A model generated the notes under the pieces. That model was not told where the DNA came from. It made no database searches and saw only the letters and a list, made by a program, of their open reading frames with translations. Positions 52,370 to 62,000 of a DNA stretch of 64,000 nucleotides are shown piece after piece; the first letter of the stretch is position 1; each line of letters opens with the position of its first letter. Source of the stretch: Arthonia radiata (taxonomy: Eukaryota > Ascomycota > Arthoniomycetes > Arthoniales > Arthoniaceae). The translations under genes and the position numbers were made by a program. The stretch is taken from assembly GCA_002989075.1 (NCBI GenBank), contig PSQN01000003.1:813366-877365 (forward strand). Direction: 5' to 3'.

Positions 52370-55300
52370 TCACCACAACGGGTTCTTCAGCCCGGTCAAG
52401 TTGTCCAAAAGACTCTTCTCCTCCTCGCCTTGCTTCTTTCTTTGCCCCTGCAACTGTTCACACATTAGCTGACGACGCCTGCGCGTAACGACAGGCTCAT
52501 TACTCACCTCAAGCTGCACACCCCGATGCACGGCCACAAGCCAATCGACATAACTCCTCTCCTCTGCATTCCGATCTTCCATCAACAACCGCGCAAACTC
52601 AAACTCGCTGCCATCCATCCCCTGACGTGCCATTTGTAACACGCATCCCTTGCTGCCCCTCGTATCCGCCATATACTGCAACACGTTCCTTACCTGCGCA
52701 TTCAAATGTGTCTCCAGCACCGGCAGCTCCGCCAGATATGGATCGATGCTCTCCAGACTACTCACATTGGCACCAAAAAGATCTTCAAGCAGGTTTGGCG
52801 ACACCTGCGCGTGCAGCCAGAGTATCACCGGCCCTGTCGCTGGATCGATGAGATATGCTCCGCCCTCCTCTACGCGGCCCCATGAACACCGCATCGAATT
52901 TGGCACTTTGAGATGACCACGCTCGTTGGGGAAGCCGTCACCGGGCTCGAGGTTGTGCAGCGCGATCATGCGAGGGTACAGATGCAGACTCAGCTCGGCG
53001 GGACTCATGCCCTTGATGCTGCGCATGTCGAATACCCTCCGGTCCGCTGGCTCGACCCCGCCTTTCAGTGCCCGGGTTTTAAGAAGGCAGAGACTGTACA
53101 TCGCGAACTCTTTCAAGTTCTCAGGCAGGACAAGCTGACCCGGTGGGTGCGAACCGGAGAAGTTGCGGCGGTAGGAGGATAAGATGTCAATCGTTTTTTC
53201 TGTGATCCGGCTGCGAATTTCGCGCAGAATCTTATCGGGCATCTGCTGCGCGGCTTGCTTTGCAAAGAGAGTCACGACCGCATCTTGGTCGACGAGTTTC
53301 ATGGCCGCGAGAGCACCTTCGGAGACGGAGGCGACGGTGTTAGTACAGCGGATGCGGCGCTCGCCCGATGCTGTTGTGTAAAGAAGTGCACTTTGAAAGT
53401 GAGCATCGAGTTTGGGGTCAAGCTTGCCGTCGTAGGAGAAGGAGGCGCCAAAGGCTTTGTCGGCGTCGATAGCGCCGAGCTCGATGTCAGCGCCAAACGT
53501 GTGTTGTGTGAAGTTGCCGAAATAATTCGAGACCTGCAGACCGTTGCTGCAGCGGACTTTGAGCAGCGCCTGGAAACCCGACTCTCGGGTTAGGTTACGT
53601 GTGAGCTCCTTCGCGATGCGAGCATTGTCGCGGGGATAGACGTAGTTGGGGTAATAATACACCTCGCCACCTGTCTTCTCAGCAATATGGCCAATCGAGG
53701 CAATGTCGAGATAGCCGCCTTGAGGTGCAGCGAGGAAGAAGTCAGCACCGATGCCAGCTTCAGTCATGTTTTTGGCGGCTTTGTGGAAGCCTGGATGTTC
53801 AGTGGCGAATACCTTACGTTCGCCTTCTGTGTCTCTAAGCTCTGGCTTTTCCCGCATGAACAAACGACCGGGTCCCCAAGTGGGTAGTGAAGAAAGTGAT
53901 GTGACGAGGCGACCGCCAGTAGGTTTGAGAGCTTCGACTGCGGCATTGACAGCAGGGAGAAGTGCAGGTTCAGGAGCTTTGATCTTGGAGAACATGGACG
54001 GGACTTTGTTCAAAAGTGTGGTGATGGAAGCGCGGCATTCTTGAGGATCGAAAAAGGTGTCGCCAGCTGTGGGAAGGAATGGATCCTCGATATCAGGCAT
54101 GACATACATGTGGGAGTGTTCCGAGCCAGCAGTGAAATTGTAGAAGTGGGTTTCCTTGTCGAAAGTTGCTATCCCAACCTTGGAGCCAGCAGCTAGTTTG
54201 GGAGTACTGACAGTGCCATTGGTCTCACCGTTGGTCTCGCCTTGCTGGTGATCCTTGCCATAAAGCGTTTCCAGGATGCCCTGACAGAATGCCTCCAAGA
54301 ACCCCTTGCTGACAGCTTCCATGCTCACATCAATGAGGAACAGCCACCGCTGGGGCATGGGCTCCTTCGTCCAGTATTCACGCGGCGCCGCGAACTCGAC
54401 GGTACCAAGTGATAGCTCTGGCCTCTGCATCCGGTCAACCCTCGCGCCTGAGGGATCCGTAGGGGCGAAGTAAGATGGGTCCACGTCATTTGGAAATGTA
54501 CACATGTTGCACACAAACTTGTTACCGCCTGATCGGAAGACCATGAATGGGTTGATGTACGCTCGACATCTCCGACACCGGGGCGGGCCTTGATCACCAA
54601 AGTCTATTACTGGCACTGCTGGCTCACCATCCTGTTGCGGCGCAAGCGGTTGTAAGACGAGTCCGAGGGGCACTGAAGTCGCATTGAGCGCTTCTGATGT
54701 AGTCGGGATATTGTTGAGTGTGAGGCGACAGTATTTGGGTGATGAATTGCTCTGATCCACGGCGACGAAAGGTATGCAAGAGGGCGGCGGTAGGTGTTGC
54801 TCCATCGTAGGATAGACATGATCGAGATAGTATTCTGCCGGCGCGTCTCTTGACCATGGTATGCTTGGAACTTGTTCCGGGTCTACCTTGCCTTGCGCCG
54901 ACGTGACGGGTGCACCGTGAAGAGGGGTACCTGCTCTTGCTGGTGCTTGCATGTGTTGCTGAAAGCCTGCAGCTCCCCCAGGTGTACCCGGTTGTGACCA
55001 TGATTGCTGCCCCTGATAGCCCTGAAAGCCCTGCTGTGTCTGCGCATTCTGCTCGTATTGCTGTCCACCAGGAGGAGCCCATTGACCTGCACCTCCCGCT
55101 GGCATCGGCGGAACACCACCACTCGCGGCCCCTACGTCATGATATGCGTGGCGGCCCTTCTTCTTCATCGTGCTTCTGCCACCAGGTTGCCCGTCCATGT
55201 TCATGCCACCCATCTGCGCATTGAGCTGGGACATGTCCGCTCCTGCCGGTGGCTGTCCGGGCTGCTGGAAGTAGCCTTGGTTGGGCTGCGCGCCTTGAGA

Positions 55301-55414
55301 TTGCGAGCCTGGTGTGCCTGGCGGAAATTGATTTGGAGGACCTCCGTGCTGCGGCATGCCTTGGTAGTCTTGCTGAGGTTGCCCACCCCATTGTTGGTTA
55401 GGTTGGTATGCCAT
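52370..55414 (-). CDS. sec24: Sec24, cargo-binding subunit of the COPII coat
   Basis: COPII adaptor that pairs with Sec23 and selects cargo for ER-to-Golgi vesicles. Model: 55414-52508 and 52453-52370, giving 996 residues; read through without the intron, the frame gives 1,014. The N-terminal about 190 residues are Gln/Gly/Pro-rich and disordered, as usual for Sec24. The zinc finger has C280, C283, C302 and C305. The trunk follows (RWLFLIDVSMEAVSKGFLEAFCQGIL is its recognisable start), then beta-sandwich, helical and gelsolin-like regions. The last intron (52454-52507, 54 nt) has a consensus GTGAGT donor, a GCTAAT branch and a CAG acceptor. Because it is 3n long and stop-free, both forms are readable. 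Only the short C-terminus depends on this choice. Confidence 0.94.
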   Translation of the reverse strand: MAYQPNQQWGGQPQQDYQGMPQHGGPPNQFPPGTPGSQSQGAQPNQGYFQQPGQPPAGADMSQLNAQMGGMNMDGQPGGRSTMKKKGRHAYHDVGAASGGVPPMPAGGAGQWAPPGGQQYEQNAQTQQGFQGYQGQQSWSQPGTPGGAAGFQQHMQAPARAGTPLHGAPVTSAQGKVDPEQVPSIPWSRDAPAEYYLDHVYPTMEQHLPPPSCIPFVAVDQSNSSPKYCRLTLNNIPTTSEALNATSVPLGLVLQPLAPQQDGEPAVPVIDFGDQGPPRCRRCRAYINPFMVFRSGGNKFVCNMCTFPNDVDPSYFAPTDPSGARVDRMQRPELSLGTVEFAAPREYWTKEPMPQRWLFLIDVSMEAVSKGFLEAFCQGILETLYGKDHQQGETNGETNGTVSTPKLAAGSKVGIATFDKETHFYNFTAGSEHSHMYVMPDIEDPFLPTAGDTFFDPQECRASITTLLNKVPSMFSKIKAPEPALLPAVNAAVEALKPTGGRLVTSLSSLPTWGPGRLFMREKPELRDTEGERKVFATEHPGFHKAAKNMTEAGIGADFFLAAPQGGYLDIASIGHIAEKTGGEVYYYPNYVYPRDNARIAKELTRNLTRESGFQALLKVRCSNGLQVSNYFGNFTQHTFGADIELGAIDADKAFGASFSYDGKLDPKLDAHFQSALLYTTASGERRIRCTNTVASVSEGALAAMKLVDQDAVVTLFAKQAAQQMPDKILREIRSRITEKTIDILSSYRRNFSGSHPPGQLVLPENLKEFAMYSLCLLKTRALKGGVEPADRRVFDMRSIKGMSPAELSLHLYPRMIALHNLEPGDGFPNERGHLKVPNSMRCSWGRVEEGGAYLIDPATGPVILWLHAQVSPNLLEDLFGANVSSLESIDPYLAELPVLETHLNAQVRNVLQYMADTRGSKGCVLQMARQGMDGSEFEFARLLMEDRNAEERSYVDWLVAVHRGVQLEVSNEPVVTRRRRQLMCEQLQGQRKKQGEEEKSLLDNLTGLKNPLW

Positions 55415-55701
55415 TGTGTGCGTGCGACTGTGGGAATGGTGCTACCGTGGAGGAGATATGAGGTAGGGCATGTTGCGAGGAGCCGAGCGCAGACTCGATT
55501 GCTGCACAGGAGGCGAAGGATTCACGCAGAGCAACGCGCGTTCACCTAACTTGTCGATTTGGTCTCCGTTTGTGCCTGGACTTTCCAATCCACGCTTCGA
55601 TGCCAGGATGTTTCAGAGTTGGAGGATCACGACACTCCACATTGGGTAACAACGACCTCTGTAGAAATCGAAGAAAGTTGTTGCACTCGTCCGAAATCCG
55701 C

Positions 55702-58676
55702 TCAACACTTCGACTTATTGGCGAAGAATCTCTGCAATCTATCTATGGTCCCGTTGAGGGTTCGATCCTCAGTAAAGAGGCTCGCCTTGATCCACCCTGG
55801 CAGCTTCCCCTGAATATCCGCCCTTCTATATCTCTTGTCCACCAACATGATGGCAGCATAATCGTCCTTATGCCTAATCGCACGGCCAATGCTCTGGTTC
55901 ACTGCGCGCATACATGCACTTGTGTAAAACTCCCTTGCAGCACTGCCACGCTCGCTCAGGGTTGAAGCGCGCTTCTCGGCGAACTCCATTTTCGCTTTCC
56001 ACTCCGGTGACTGAGCATTCGGGAACGGAAGACCGACCACCATGATGCCACGCCCAAGCTGGTCTGCAAAGTTGATTCCTTCGGATAGGGAGCCGCCTAT
56101 GACGGCAAAGAGAAGCGCGCCACGTTGGTCCGTAGCGTCATTAATGTGGCTTGTGTACTTAGCGAGGATCTGATCAACCTTCTCGTGCTTCGAATCTACC
56201 GCCTTGTCCTCTAGTATTTCCTCTGAAGGACCGGCCGAGACTTCTGTCTTCTCCATGAAGATACGCTTCGCTGTTGACATGCGGTCCCAAGGCGTGCCGT
56301 CACCACTGACCGTCTTCCATGAATTGACTGCAGTATTGAGGTAAGCGTAGCTGGGGAAGAAGACAACAAGGCCATCCGGAATGACTTGTGCCGCAGCCAG
56401 AACTGTTCTGCCGAGCTCTTGCAGCATGGCTTGGGACCCTCTCCGCTCGTAAGTGAACTCGAATTCGACACCACTCCGACCTTGAACTACTGGCAGTGCC
56501 ACCAGATTGCTGCTCGGGATTACGTGACCACAAGAGAGCGTCATGATTCGCTCTGATGGCATGTAATGCAACAAATGGCTCTTGTAATCGTCCATTGGGG
56601 ACATCGTGCCGCCTGCTAGGATCACAGCTCTTGCTTCTTCGACGATTTCCTTGAAGTGATGCGTCGGGTCGAGCAACAGATATTTAAGAACTACCTCACC
56701 ATCTGAAGCATCGGCTGTGACTGATCTCGAATAGAAGAAGCGACCCTCCGCGGAAGGATACGTCAGGGCAAGCATGAAACTTTGCACCTGCATCAGCACT
56801 GGCACTGATGCTCGCTTCGATCTTGCTTGGGGTCCACCAGACTGGTTGGGTTGTTGTTCGGCAAAGTCGGTGTATCCATCTACTTTGCGGGCGAGCTTGC
56901 TCTCTTGCAGATAATGCATCAGCTTGTACAGGTTGATTTGATCGACGCCTTTGCCGGTCATCAAGTCTCCGATCTGAACGATGCCTTCACCCTGGCTCGC
57001 CGGCTGCTGCTTCGTTTGAAGGTATACTGCTATCGAGTCGACGAGTCGAACCAGCTGCGTCACATATACCCTGTTCTTGCCCTTCAGCCTGTTCCTGAAC
57101 TTCTGCAAGTAAGCCGTCATCTGTGATCGGGCGCGCTTAAGCTGAGTCACTGATACCGATACAGAGTAGAGCTCAGATATCGTATCCGTCAAATTGTGCG
57201 CTTCGTCTACGATGACGACGTGGTTCTTCAATGACAGCTTGAGAGCTTCCCGCGCGGACTTCTGCAACAGCAGCGGGTACGGTAGGGTTGCGATCTCACT
57301 GGGGTTGATTGCAGCTCGCGAGGCATAGTATGGACAGATGCCAATCTTTTCGCCGAGCTGACCTAGATCTTCAATGTCCCGTACCTTTGCCATTGTGTGG
57401 TCACGAAAGTCATTTACGAGAGCCTCACTATCTGGGTTCGGCAGGAACTTACACTTGGAATCCTTTGGGGTAGAAGGTTGCTGGAGCTCCAGACATCGTT
57501 CGTTGATGGCCGTGGCGTTGCCCAACTTCTTGACCTTGGAATTGATGCAGAGATTTTTGCGAGAGCCGAGCACGAGATGCTTGAAGTCTTCTGCAAGGGC
57601 TTCTTCTTGGTTGGCTGAGGCGTCTGGAATTCCGGGGTCAGGAGGCAGAGCAGGCGGCATCTTGACGCGACGCAGCTCGTTTACGAATTGGCTCAGCTGT
57701 GAATGCGTCCTCGAGCAGAATATGACCTTCAATTCTTCATCGGCTTCCGCTTCATCTGTACCGGCAGCGGGTTTCAGGTAGTCTCCCAGCTTGTCAATCA
57801 GGGCCTGTGTCTCTGATGAGATCCCATCAGCCGTTGCCTTGCTCGCCATCTTCGATCCAGCAGACTCGTCTTCGCTTTCATAGTCGTCAAGAGCAAATTG
57901 CGCTTCGTCAGCATCTGACGTTGAGGTCTCGTTTGCGCCAATTCTCTACCTTTTCAATAAGTAAAATCCACTGATCGAGCACGGAAAAGGTCATACCGCC
58001 CGCTTGGCTGGAGGCTCTCCGCGTTCAAACCGCTGTCGTGCCTTCGCCTCCTTTGCGCGTATCTTCGCAAGCCGCTCTTCCGTATCATTGCGCCGTTGCA
58101 GCACTTGCCGCCGCTTCTCAGCTTTGGCATGCTCGACCATCCACTCAGGCTCGTCTTCATCTGCAATCATCTCAGCACGTGCCTTGCGGAATGAAAGAAT
58201 CATCATAAATACTGGCGACCGCCTCGGAAAGCTGCTCTTCGAGTTGCTTCCGTTTGTGCTCCCGCAGCCATGTCAGGGAGCCGCAGATCAGGCTCAATGA
58301 TTTGCCCTTCCCACGTCAGCACGCATTCTGTTATTAGCGGGTCTTTACGACTAGCTCACAGTGCCTGCGACTAGTGTCAGCAAGCTGTCCGTGGTGACAT
58401 GATTTGTCCTGCATGAAGCACACTAGACGGCGCTTCTGGAGCAGCTGTGGAGAGCCAGCCGCTGGCTACATGAGGGGTCCAAGGCGCACAAGGGGTTTCG
58501 ACATACCTGAATGCTGTCAACTGATGCCATTACGAATGCTAGATGCAGTGCGGACCAGTGGGTGATTCGAAAATGCCGACTTTACCCTCTCCAATGCACT
58601 GATACACCGCATCCATGAAGTCAAGCTGGATGCCATACGGCGTGAAAGGATGGTGATAGTCCCGTCGTACAGCCAT
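55702..58676 (-). CDS. chl1: Chl1/DDX11-type Fe-S DNA helicase
   Basis: ATP-dependent 5'-to-3' DNA helicase of the XPD/FANCJ/DDX11 group, needed for sister-chromatid cohesion and replication-fork work. Model: 58676-58556, 58364-58360, 58306-58213, 58160-57997 and 57945-55702, giving 875 residues, the usual size for Chl1. Exon 1 starts [20 protein letters not shown] and ends at ESPT plus one base. A 5-nt micro-exon supplies the rest of G-T, and exon 3 opens with [17 protein letters not shown], so Walker A reads GTGKS. Motif Ia [11 protein letters not shown], four cysteines of the Fe-S cluster (in NLCIN, NERC, SKCKF and GICPYY), DEAH box VDEAHNL and motif [16 protein letters not shown] are all present. 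Intron 1 has a weak GTCCGC donor; the others are ordinary. The micro-exon is a prediction from reading frame and splice sites. Confidence 0.88.
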
Positions 58677-59064
58677 TGCGCTGGGAGGATGCTGAACGTT
58701 GAGCGAGCAGAGCAGATTCTGTGAATTTTCGACGAGTGACGGACGCGTCCGAAACACGTACTCGCAACGCGTCGCGTGAAACCTTAAAGTTCCTGGAATC
58801 AAACACAGGAAATCGACCGGACACAATACTATCAGGCATAGCAGCTATCATCTCAGCTCTATCGCCTTTGCAATTGCTGTATCTCCAGCAAACAATATGT
58901 ACAAGGCTCTGTTAATCTATACAATAACGTTCAGCCTCGCGGCGCTCCACATCAAGGCATGTTCTATCGTCCCTCTCATGCGTCTGCATATGTATGCTCA
59001 AAACGCCTCGCTTTGCAATGAATATACCTCCACGCGGTTCGGACAGTCAAACCCGTCAAGTTGA
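58677..59064. other. Intergenic region upstream of chl1
   Basis: A stretch of 388 bp between the histidine kinase stop and the chl1 start, both on the minus strand. It contains the chl1 promoter and the kinase 3' UTR. I see no other feature. Confidence 0.5.
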
Positions 59065-62000
59065 TCACACCTTTCCTGAGCCATTCGCCTCTCCTTTACT
59101 TACACTTCTGTTCTCTTTCGCGCCAGACGCGGTGTCCCCAGGAGCCTTCTGCGTGTCCCCCTCAGCTTCTTTCGCTGCTACGTGTGGCTCTTCGATCCAT
59201 CGGGCGATCATCGCCTTCAACACATTCTGTCTCACCGGTTTCGCCAAGTAGCCGTTCATGCCGCTATCCAGACATTTCTCACGGTCTCCACGGATGGCAC
59301 TGGCGGTCATGGCGATGATGAGCACATTCTTCACCTGCTCCTCTGTACTCTTACGAATCTCTCTTGTCGCATCGTAGCCATCCAACACCGGCATCTGGCA
59401 GTCCATCAGCACGATGTGGAAAGGGTTGCCCTCCTGCGCAGCGACGTGTAACGCGTCCACGGCTTGTCTGCCATCGAGATACGCCGAGCATTGATAGCCT
59501 AATTTCTTGACGTAAGCGATCGCGATCTTCTGGTTCAGCAGATTGTCTTCGGCGACAAGGATTTGGATCCTGTCCGCGGGGATGCCCTTCAAATCAATTG
59601 GGTGATCAGCGCCGGACACGGCGCGACGCTCCGTATCGCCCGCGACGTCAGCTTCCGAAGCAGTGTATATGGCCATAGGATCGGCGGCTTGTTTGCGGCG
59701 CTCTGGCAGCTGGGTCGACGTGATCGTACTGCCTGGCTTGATGGCACCATGATGGCCAGGCGCTTTGGGAAATTTAAGGGTGAAAGACACCTTGGTGCCT
59801 TGGTCGACTTTACTCTCCATCCAGATTTTGCCCTTCATCACGCTCTCGATTATCGCTTTGCAGATGCTCAGACCTAGACCGGTGCCACCATGCGATCGCG
59901 CAGTGGAGCTGTCTGCCTGCGAGAAAGGTAGGAACAGCTTTAGCCTCTGCTCTTCGGATACACCGACACCCGTGTCAGCAACTGAACACGTCACCGTTGC
60001 TTCGTTCTCGTCTTCGCTGTCGACGATTGCTGAGACTGTCACTCGGCCGGAGAAGGTGAACTTGTAAGCGTTCGACATGAGGTTCATGAGGATCTGGTGA
60101 AGGCGTACAGGGTCGCCTGAAAGGTGATATCAGCACATGGCACAGAAGGAAACTTCTCAATGGGCACTATTGCTGGCCAACAGAGAGAGGTGTTGGAAGA
60201 CAACGTTACAATGACAGCCGCATGGACTGAAACGGGAATGCTGTGAAGGCTGTAGACTTACCAAGCACGAGCGACCTCGGCTCAACGTCCAATTTGACCA
60301 AAGTCTCTACCTTCTTGTCGTTGCTATAGCTCAACGCGCGCACGACTTCATTGATCGTGTCATAGAGCGAAAGCTCGACGGAGAACACTTGCATTTTGCC
60401 GGCCTCAAGCTTCGAGTAATCGAGAATGTCGTTAATAACGGTGAGCAGTGTGTCAGCGCAGACCCTGTGAATATATGTGTTAGCATTAGATAGCTGGTGC
60501 AGCGATGCAGATAGCCATCTCGACGTAGCAGAGCAGCTCTTTGTGCGCATGTGACCTACCTAATGGAATCTGCGTACGACTCTTGCTCGGCGCTGAGAGT
60601 GCTTCCTTTCAGCAACTCGCTCATGCCTAGAAAACGCCGCTTAGCACGTCTCGATGTCTCGGTGCCTGAGAGTCTGTAGCTTACCTATGACTCCGTTCAG
60701 AGGTGTCCGCAGCTCGTGTGAGACGTTAGCAAGGAACATCGACTTAGCTTTCGCTGCCTCTTCCTTCAGCTTGACGTTTCGAATAGCCTCAGCCTCGGCA
60801 TCCTTTGCCTTCTGCTCGGACTGCCGAGCCTTCTCCAAAGCATGCTTCTGGGCTTCGATCATGACGGCATTGCTGGCGCTGACCTTCTCAACCTTCTTAA
60901 AGAGCTGCGAGTTCGTTATCGAGGTGCTAAAGGCGTTGCCTAGGAGCTGCAGGAATGTGGCGTTTCGTTGCGTGAAAGACCTCCCGTGCACGAAGATCAC
61001 ACCCAGTATGTCGTTTTCGCCGCGAAAAATAGGCTGAACGATAACGGCCCTGCACTCGCCAAAATGAGCGAGATCCTGAGGTGACATGCTGAATCGGGTC
61101 TGCTCGTAGACGTTGGGCAAGAAAATCGTCTCCCGAAATCTGATTGCACTCATCACTAGACTGATGCCGGCAGCGTTCTTGATCTCGTTCAGGCGCATAT
61201 GCTTCTTTGTTTGGGCTGCTCTGGCGTCAGTAAAAGAACTGACCACCCAGCCTTCGTCACTCTCTTGCACGAGGCCAAAAACACTCGCGTTAGTCGCATC
61301 GATCGTAATCTTCGTCATCGACTCGAATAACCGGTCGGAATTGAGCTCAGACGCGAGAACTTGGCTGCTGCTTAAGATGGATTGTAGATCGAGCACATCC
61401 AGCCCAAGGGAAGCGGCATCTCCATGATAAGCTTCTTGTGAGCCTGATCCTTTGGAGACATGTCTAGCAGCAGCAATAGCTGGCATTGAAGGAACATCGA
61501 GCTCGTCCGTCTCTATTTGGCCGGCGGAGAGGGCCGGCGGAAGTGGGAACTCGTTCTCAATGGTCTGGCAAGCTGCGTCGTTTGAATACATCGAGACGCC
61601 GACTCTAATGACGTACTCGTGGCGTTCTTGAACCTGTGTAGCTTTCGCAAAGGCTGATATCCGCCGGTAGGATGCGATAGCATCGAGCAAGGCACGCCTG
61701 GCAAGCCTCCTCGCTCCACGGCGCACCAAGAACTCTGCAGACAATTCTGTGACGATGCCGTAATCCATATGCAGGCTCGCAAGCTCAGCTGCGTCTTGAG
61801 CAGCTTCGAATGCGGCAACGCTCACGTCGTACCTCTCATCCGCCTCTGCGATGAGAGCGTTGAGGAGATGGATGTACGTAGCGTAGTTCGCCTCGTTGAC
61901 TGCGGACCACGACTCCATGCGCTGCTTGACTTTTCGCGCCTCTAAGAGGTTACCTGTTAGTAATGCAAGCATCTTGGGGGCACTACCGAGACTTGCCTTG

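What the first reader, a model, noticed from the sequence alone, without database searches (positions are those of the whole stretch)
58307..58555. A 5-nt micro-exon appears to encode the Walker A loop of chl1
Exon 1 ends at ESPT plus one base, because a stop follows soon after, and the helicase frame resumes at GKS in 58306-58213. Joining them directly does not work under the GT-AG rule: the phase is wrong by five bases. Within the gap, GCACT at 58364-58360 is preceded by a CTGAC branch and a CAG acceptor and followed by a consensus GTGAGC donor. Inserting it gives exactly T-G-T-G-K-S, the family Walker A. The second intron is then 53 nt with its own CTGAC branch. So the ATP-binding loop would depend on correct inclusion of a 5-nt exon, and skipping it would destroy the helicase.
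Basis: partly seen in the sequence, partly recalled or inferred. Interest (0 to 1): 0.75.

Follow-up and report, generated by a model that had tools for sequence, protein, structure and literature searches.

The report
Five-base exon in fungal CHL1 helicase
A fungal DNA-repair helicase gene appears to need a five-base exon to complete its ATP-binding loop, an extreme example of a known kind of tiny exon that gene-finding programs easily miss.

Summary
The minus-strand chl1 gene, in an ascomycete genome whose CHL1 groups with an Arthoniomycete, runs through exon 1 to ESPT plus one base (58676-58556) and resumes at GKS (58306). The phases do not fit. Of 34 frame-restoring exons of up to 79 nt with AG and GT/GC borders in the 249-base gap, only GCACT (58364-58360) gives the family's TGTGKS; it completes an otherwise intact 875-aa protein. 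It has a CAG acceptor, a CTGAC branch-like site and a GTGAGC donor. No other site with these signals lies in the 263.5 kb sampled; 0.01% of shuffles of the gap have one. Weak point: the intron 1 donor, GTCCGC. Odd public protein models suggest, indirectly, that each flanking intron position exists alone in other fungi, and the nearest named relative's model omits the GKS exon. No transcript or relative's DNA was available, so splicing is inferred. Fungal micro-exons of 1 nt (CYP621A) and 20 nt (Xlr2) are in print: a new member of a known kind. A shared, widely mis-annotated CHL1 micro-exon is possible but unproven.

The parts
58556..58676 (-). chl1 exon 1, codons 1-40 plus first base of Gly41 (MAVRR...ESPT-G)
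   Evidence: 29, 24 and 27 of 40 residues identical to P0003, P0004 and P0018.
58365..58555 (-). Intron 1, 191 nt, GTCCGC...CTGAC-N8-CAG; phase 1
   Evidence: Donor is non-consensus; long for this gene.
58507..58555 (-). Possible first part of intron 1 (49 nt, ends TTGACAGCATTCAG), abutting a donor
   Evidence: TTCAG|GTATGT zero-length junction; 21 of 12,998 genome windows of 191 nt have such a site. Post hoc.
58365..58506 (-). Possible second part of intron 1 (142 nt, GTATGT...CAG)
   Evidence: the same mRNA results either way.
58360..58364 (-). 5-nt micro-exon GCACT: bases 2-3 of Gly41 and all of Thr42
   Evidence: only listed parse giving TGTGKS; chance.
58307..58359 (-). Intron 2, 53 nt, GTGAGC...CTGAC-N5-AAG; phase 0
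58213..58306 (-). chl1 exon 3, [31 protein letters not shown] plus one base
   Evidence: 23 of 31 residues identical to each of P0003, P0004 and P0018.
58161..58212 (-). Intron 3, 52 nt, GTATTT...GCAG
57997..58160 (-). chl1 exon 4
57946..57996 (-). Intron 4, 51 nt, GTATGA...GTAG
55702..57945 (-). chl1 exon 5, to the stop codon; holds the DEAD_2 and Helicase_C_2 matches

Best explanation
The gap in chl1 holds two canonical GT-AG introns flanking a constitutive 5-nt exon, GCACT. The exon is too short to be recognised on its own, so I propose it is included by intron definition in sequence: intron 2 (53 nt, consensus donor GTGAGC, CTGAC branch-like site) goes first, which fuses GCACT to exon 3; intron 1 is then removed as an ordinary intron whose acceptor CAG sits in front of a 99-nt exon, either in one 191-nt step or in two steps through the abutting TTCAG|GTATGT. 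The mRNA reads ESP-T-G-T-G-K-S, an intact Walker A, within an 875-aa CHL1. Skipping the exon gives a frameshift and a stop after 72 residues, so inclusion is all-or-nothing. Shown: the sequence elements, the frame arithmetic, uniqueness among the listed parses, the intact remaining protein, the chance figures. Inferred: that the splices occur, their order, and that there is no alternative product.
For: Frame and uniqueness (1 of 34 candidates). Full-length 875-aa protein with DEAD_2 and Helicase_C_2, and 67% and 69% identity over 85% and 81% of the query to two unnamed relatives. ESPTGTGK in 209 of 226 homologs taken from capped lists: 88 of 90 metagenome-type proteins and 121 of 136 others (the split was sorted by hand from the source columns). 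Chance 0.01% of shuffles and 0 full-signal sites in 263.5 kb outside chl1. Conservation with three full-length orthologs runs to Thr40, resumes at Gly43, and leaves exactly two residues between. The 501-base stretch has one match in its genome. Comparative and indirect: Coniosporium apollinis ESPTGT-VR...IQ-GKS fits a retained intron 2 (only 5 of 400 dipeptides can start with a GTRNG donor in that phase); Diplodia corticola ESPTG-EP can be a GTGAGC donor at intron 1 (weak: 160 of 400 dipeptides could); Phyllosticta capitalensis ESPTAGTGKS fits an acceptor 3 nt early at intron 1; Aureobasidium melanogenum RLE-GKS and Trizodia VITQ-GKS fit early acceptors at intron 2. The nearest named relative in the tree, Alyxoria varia, has a public model that joins exon 1 to exon 4 and omits the GKS exon.
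Against: No transcript and no DNA of a relative was available. The intron 1 donor GTCCGC lacks the purine at +3, and my attempts at a splice model of this genome were too few and noisy to say how rare that is. Diplodia corticola and Phyllosticta capitalensis seem to have intron 1 without intron 2, so a 5-nt exon is not general. Exon-skipped models also occur in Diplodia seriata, where I expect no micro-exon, so the Alyxoria sign is not specific. TGxGKS with x other than T occurs in 4 named models (K, K, E, A), so Thr42 is not absolutely required in the database.
Confidence: 0.85

Rival explanations
1. One 244-nt intron with a non-canonical 3' end: exon 1 ACTG joined to GGAAG-GGC, giving ESPTG-K-GKS, with intron ends GT...TG at ...CTGACGTG|GGAAGGGC.
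For: Read by eye from the sequence. A TGKGKS Walker A is listed for two named models, Pseudovirgaria and Trichodelitschia.
Against: It needs a TG 3' splice site four bases after the A of the CTGAC branch-like site, while a canonical two-intron route exists that gives the residue present in 209 of 226 homologs.
Confidence: 0.05
2. The gene is a recent pseudogene or a damaged allele, and GCACT is coincidence.
For: Intron 1 has a weak donor and unusual length.
Against: The rest of the coding sequence is open and conserved. The full signal set appears in 0.01% of shuffles.
Confidence: 0.05
3. An 11-nt exon (TCGCAGGCACT) is used instead, through the TAG acceptor six bases upstream, giving ESPTVAGTGKS.
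For: It is open and in frame.
Against: That TAG ends about six bases after the branch-like A, and the loop spacing of the family is broken. It might occur as a minor isoform.
Confidence: 0.03
4. An assembly or sequencing error makes the gap look like two introns.
For: No reads were available to check.
Against: A small error cannot create 249 bases with paired donor, branch-like and acceptor signals; the 501-base stretch has one match in the genome.
Confidence: 0.02

Closest known systems
CYP621A one-nucleotide exon of Fusarium (PMC12940212, part 1 of 3 of the text read)
   Same: Micro-exon in a filamentous ascomycete, inside a conserved motif, inferred from a phase mismatch and an intronless relative, flanked by AG and GT in an unusually long gap.
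   Different: 1 nt instead of 5; there 20 orthologs were compared and reads from two species confirm it; here there is one gene and no reads.
Xlr2 20-nt micro-exon of Trichoderma virens (PMC11121469, passages read)
   Same: Filamentous fungus, length not a multiple of three, missing from the public gene model, encodes part of a key domain.
   Different: Larger, and reported as a glucose-dependent switch; no evidence of regulation here.
Small exons of Phanerochaete P450 genes (PMC1184071, passages read)
   Same: Fungal exons as short as 6 bp in genes with small introns.
   Different: Basidiomycete P450 genes; exons of 2-10 residues.
Stwintrons (PMC6616335, passages read; others seen only as abstract starts in the listing)
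   Same: Complex intervening sequences removed in consecutive steps; the abutting TTCAG|GTATGT in intron 1 resembles such a case.
   Different: A stwintron leaves no exon sequence between its parts; here 5 coding bases must be kept.

Membership tests
Micro-exon (internal exon of 30 nt or less) | Length, and splice sites of two introns on its sides | tested here: met
   5 nt between CAG and GTGAGC; introns of 191 and 53 nt.
Micro-exon (internal exon of 30 nt or less) | Needed to keep the reading frame or a conserved motif | tested here: met
   Only 1 of 34 candidates gives TGTGKS; skipping gives 72 residues then a stop.
Micro-exon (internal exon of 30 nt or less) | Present in mature mRNA | not testable with these tools
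   No transcript data held.
CHL1/DDX11-type XPD-like helicase | DEAD_2 and Helicase_C_2 domains | tested here: met
   171.1 bits against cut-off 21 and 164.5 against 25.3.
CHL1/DDX11-type XPD-like helicase | Walker A (with the micro-exon), DEAH box and conserved cysteines | tested here: met
   G41, G43, K44, S45, D375-H378, C261, C279, C293 and C332 invariant in 20 aligned proteins; that four such cysteines bind Fe-S is recalled.
CHL1/DDX11-type XPD-like helicase | Nearest relatives annotated as CHL1 | tested here: met
   Many of the 120 rows listed are named ATP-dependent DNA helicase CHL1; the two closest have no name.
Stwintron | An internal intron interrupts a splice element of an external intron, with no exon between | tested here: inconclusive
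   The whole gap fails: 5 coding bases are needed. Intron 1 alone has an abutting acceptor and donor, but its splicing is untested.

The most novel reading that the evidence does not exclude
The 5-nt exon is ancestral in the CHL1 gene of Arthoniomycetes and Dothideomycetes (perhaps wider in Pezizomycotina). Lineages lost one or both flanking introns, and a number of public CHL1 models are wrong at the Walker A because gene finders did not place a 5-nt exon. The TGKGKS and TGEGKS models of Pseudovirgaria, Trichodelitschia and Lineolata would then be the last five bases of intron 2 (GNNAG) mistaken for the exon, and Alyxoria's exon-skipped model the same failure.
Probability: 0.3. Interest if true: 0.65.

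Novelty: new member of a known kind. Interest (0 to 1): 0.48.

Why it matters
If spliced as proposed, it is a very short fungal exon that completes the catalytic loop of a genome-maintenance helicase, so ATPase function hangs on joining five bases. It could also explain some of the odd CHL1 protein models in public databases, and it gives a clean natural test of how intron definition handles an exon too small to be bound by splicing factors on both sides.

Tried and rejected
No collection of fungal genomes was on hand.

A self-trained splice model gave too few and too noisy introns (25; 26 consensus-donor clusters, of which many look real), so I give no percentile for the donor GTCCGC.

One search searched with lysine at the Walker A position to draw out more TG[KEQ]GKS models; none of the 38 proteins it added (P0189-P0226) is odd at this place.

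K, E or Q stands before GKS in 7 of the 10 named models with a residue other than T there (binomial 0.0004 at the family frequency 0.18); in the subset of 6 where only the loop residue seems replaced it is 4 of 6 (0.012). K, E and Q are the residues with NAG codons, as an intron end would give. But A, N and S also occur, the test was made after seeing the data, and these could be real substitutions.

The genome-window controls (3 of 10,392 windows with the full set; 24 of 13,032 with an abutting site) included the chl1 site itself; one search repeats both without it.

A GC-donor first intron ending at another base, and a [D1,2] stwintron for the whole gap, were considered by eye and rejected because neither yields the needed GN-ACN bases.

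Literature: searches. No listed title or abstract start names a CHL1 micro-exon; some listings were capped; one search found 0 papers with 'CHL1 helicase' and 'microexon'; the 6 papers listed were not opened. PMC3990503 was checked for 'microexon': one passage, an aligner setting.

Full report
WHERE IT IS. The window is bases 813366-877365 of contig C9 of a 33.5 Mb, 16-contig genome, and the 501-base stretch 58200-58700 has one match there, itself. On the minus strand, between a frame that reads like the end of a hybrid histidine kinase (59065 upward) and one that reads like SEC24 (52370-55441; both named by eye), lies a gene whose conceptual product is an 875-aa CHL1. It has DEAD_2 and Helicase_C_2 domains, sequence matches to solved FANCJ, XPD and CHL1 chains, and many rows named CHL1 among the 120 best listed homologs. 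In a quick tree of 55 proteins it groups with two unnamed ENA proteins and Alyxoria varia (SH-aLRT 99), an Arthoniomycete. The species is not known.

THE OBSERVATION. Exon 1 (58676-58556) ends ESPT plus one base; reading on gives G-PHCI and a stop. The helicase frame resumes at GGC AAA TCA (58306). The phases are 1 and 0. With both exon ends held fixed, I listed single exons of 1-79 nt between AG and GT or GC in the gap that restore the frame without a stop and leave at least 40 nt of intron on each side: 34 candidates (13 with GT, 21 with GC), of which only GCACT at 58364-58360 gives TGTGKS. One other, of 11 nt, keeps GTGKS but inserts two residues. GCACT is preceded by CTGAC and CAG and followed by GTGAGC; intron 2 is 53 nt with its own CTGAC. 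With it the remaining gene is open; introns 3 and 4 are 52 and 51 nt.

CHANCE. In 20,000 dinucleotide shuffles of the gap, 1.14% contain some 5-nt exon encoding Gly-Thr between AG and GT, and 0.01% contain one with a pyrimidine-AG acceptor, a CTRAY site within 40 nt and a GTRNG donor. In real DNA of the same genome with the chl1 site left out, 42 of 10,364 windows of 249 nt have the bare exon, 3 have it with the donor, 0 have everything; no full-signal site occurs in the 263.5 kb sampled, both strands. The signals were chosen after seeing the site, so these figures are somewhat generous.

FAMILY CONSTRAINT. Of 226 homologs collected from three capped lists, 209 read ESPTGTGK: 88 of 90 metagenome-type proteins, the two misses being P0001 and P0002, which begin after this region, and 121 of 136 others (split by my own reading of the source columns). 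In 20 aligned proteins G41, G43, K44 and S45 are invariant and T42 at least 90%. Conservation with three full-length orthologs, 29, 24 and 27 of 40 residues in exon 1 and 23 of 31 in exon 3 each, leaves exactly two residues to be filled.

RELATIVES, INDIRECTLY. DNA of related fungi was not available. But 15 of the 136 are odd here, and several decode by hand as annotation slips at the two intron positions (sequences, back-translation). Intron 1 position: Diplodia corticola ESPTGEPPGLSTGKS can read GGT GAG CC, a GTGAGC donor after ACTG, though 160 of 400 dipeptides after Gly could encode some GTRNG donor, so this is weak; Phyllosticta capitalensis ESPTAGTGKS fits an acceptor three bases early. 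In both, T or GT stays joined to GKS, so they seem to lack intron 2. Intron 2 position: Coniosporium apollinis ESPTGT-VR...IQ-GKS fits an in-frame retained intron (5 of 400 dipeptides could start so), while its sister species has the normal motif; Aureobasidium melanogenum RLE and Trizodia VITQ before GKS fit early acceptors. Four models have TGxGKS with K, K, E and A (Pseudovirgaria, Trichodelitschia, Lineolata, Phyllosticta citrichinensis). K and E have NAG codons, as a mis-called intron end would give, but A does not, and these may be real. Three models jump from ESPT to the next exon: Diplodia seriata, Watsoniomyces, and Alyxoria varia, the nearest named relative in the tree. Exon 1 and exon 4 have matching phases in the window's gene, so a gene finder that cannot place five bases would be expected to do that; yet Diplodia seriata does it too, so the sign is not specific. 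The remaining three (Phyllosticta citribraziliensis, Pycnora, Onygenales sp.) I could not decode with confidence.

MECHANISM. In a fungus with short introns I expect recognition across introns, not exons (recalled). Intron 2 has the consensus donor and a length like introns 3 and 4 and would be removed first; the 5 bases then belong to a 99-nt exon, and intron 1 is removed next. Intron 1 holds an abutting acceptor and donor, TTCAG|GTATGT at 58507|58506; such a site occurs in 21 of 12,998 genome windows of its size, so it may be removed in two parts of 49 and 142 nt. That pattern, too, was chosen after seeing it. The weak first donor GTCCGC is the main doubt. Skipping gives a stop after 72 residues, so no useful short form is expected; failure would simply lower CHL1. 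The order of splicing and its consequences are inference.

WHAT IS KNOWN. A one-nucleotide exon in Fusarium CYP621A was inferred by the same phase argument and confirmed by reads (PMC12940212, part 1 of 3 read). A 20-nt exon of Trichoderma Xlr2 is reported as a glucose-dependent switch (PMC11121469, passages), and Phanerochaete P450 genes have exons down to 6 bp (PMC1184071, passages). So a 5-nt fungal exon is not a new kind. No title or abstract start listed by my nine paper searches names a CHL1 micro-exon; that is not proof of absence from print.

VERDICT. It is a new member of a known kind. The bolder reading, a shared ancestral micro-exon hidden by annotation errors, could be tested with the genomes of the named relatives, which I could not reach.

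Noticed in passing
window 58507|58506, minus strand: Acceptor and donor abut with no exon between (TTCAG|GTATGT) inside intron 1, so it may be removed in two steps.
   Followed up: partly
P0005, P0006, P0017, P0019, P0033, P0036, P0044, P0047, P0078, P0085, P0092: Eleven CHL1 models of 1383-1468 aa from ten genera also carry PF00854 (a transporter family, recalled); perhaps merged neighbouring genes.
   Followed up: no
P0101 (Alyxoria varia), P0086, P0096: Public CHL1 models that jump from ESPT to the next exon and so lack the Walker A lysine.
   Followed up: partly
window 59065-60129, minus strand: Frame upstream of chl1 reads like the end of a hybrid histidine kinase with a receiver domain (by eye, no search).
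   Followed up: no
window 52370-55441, minus strand: Single long frame downstream of chl1 that reads like SEC24 (by eye, no search).
   Followed up: no
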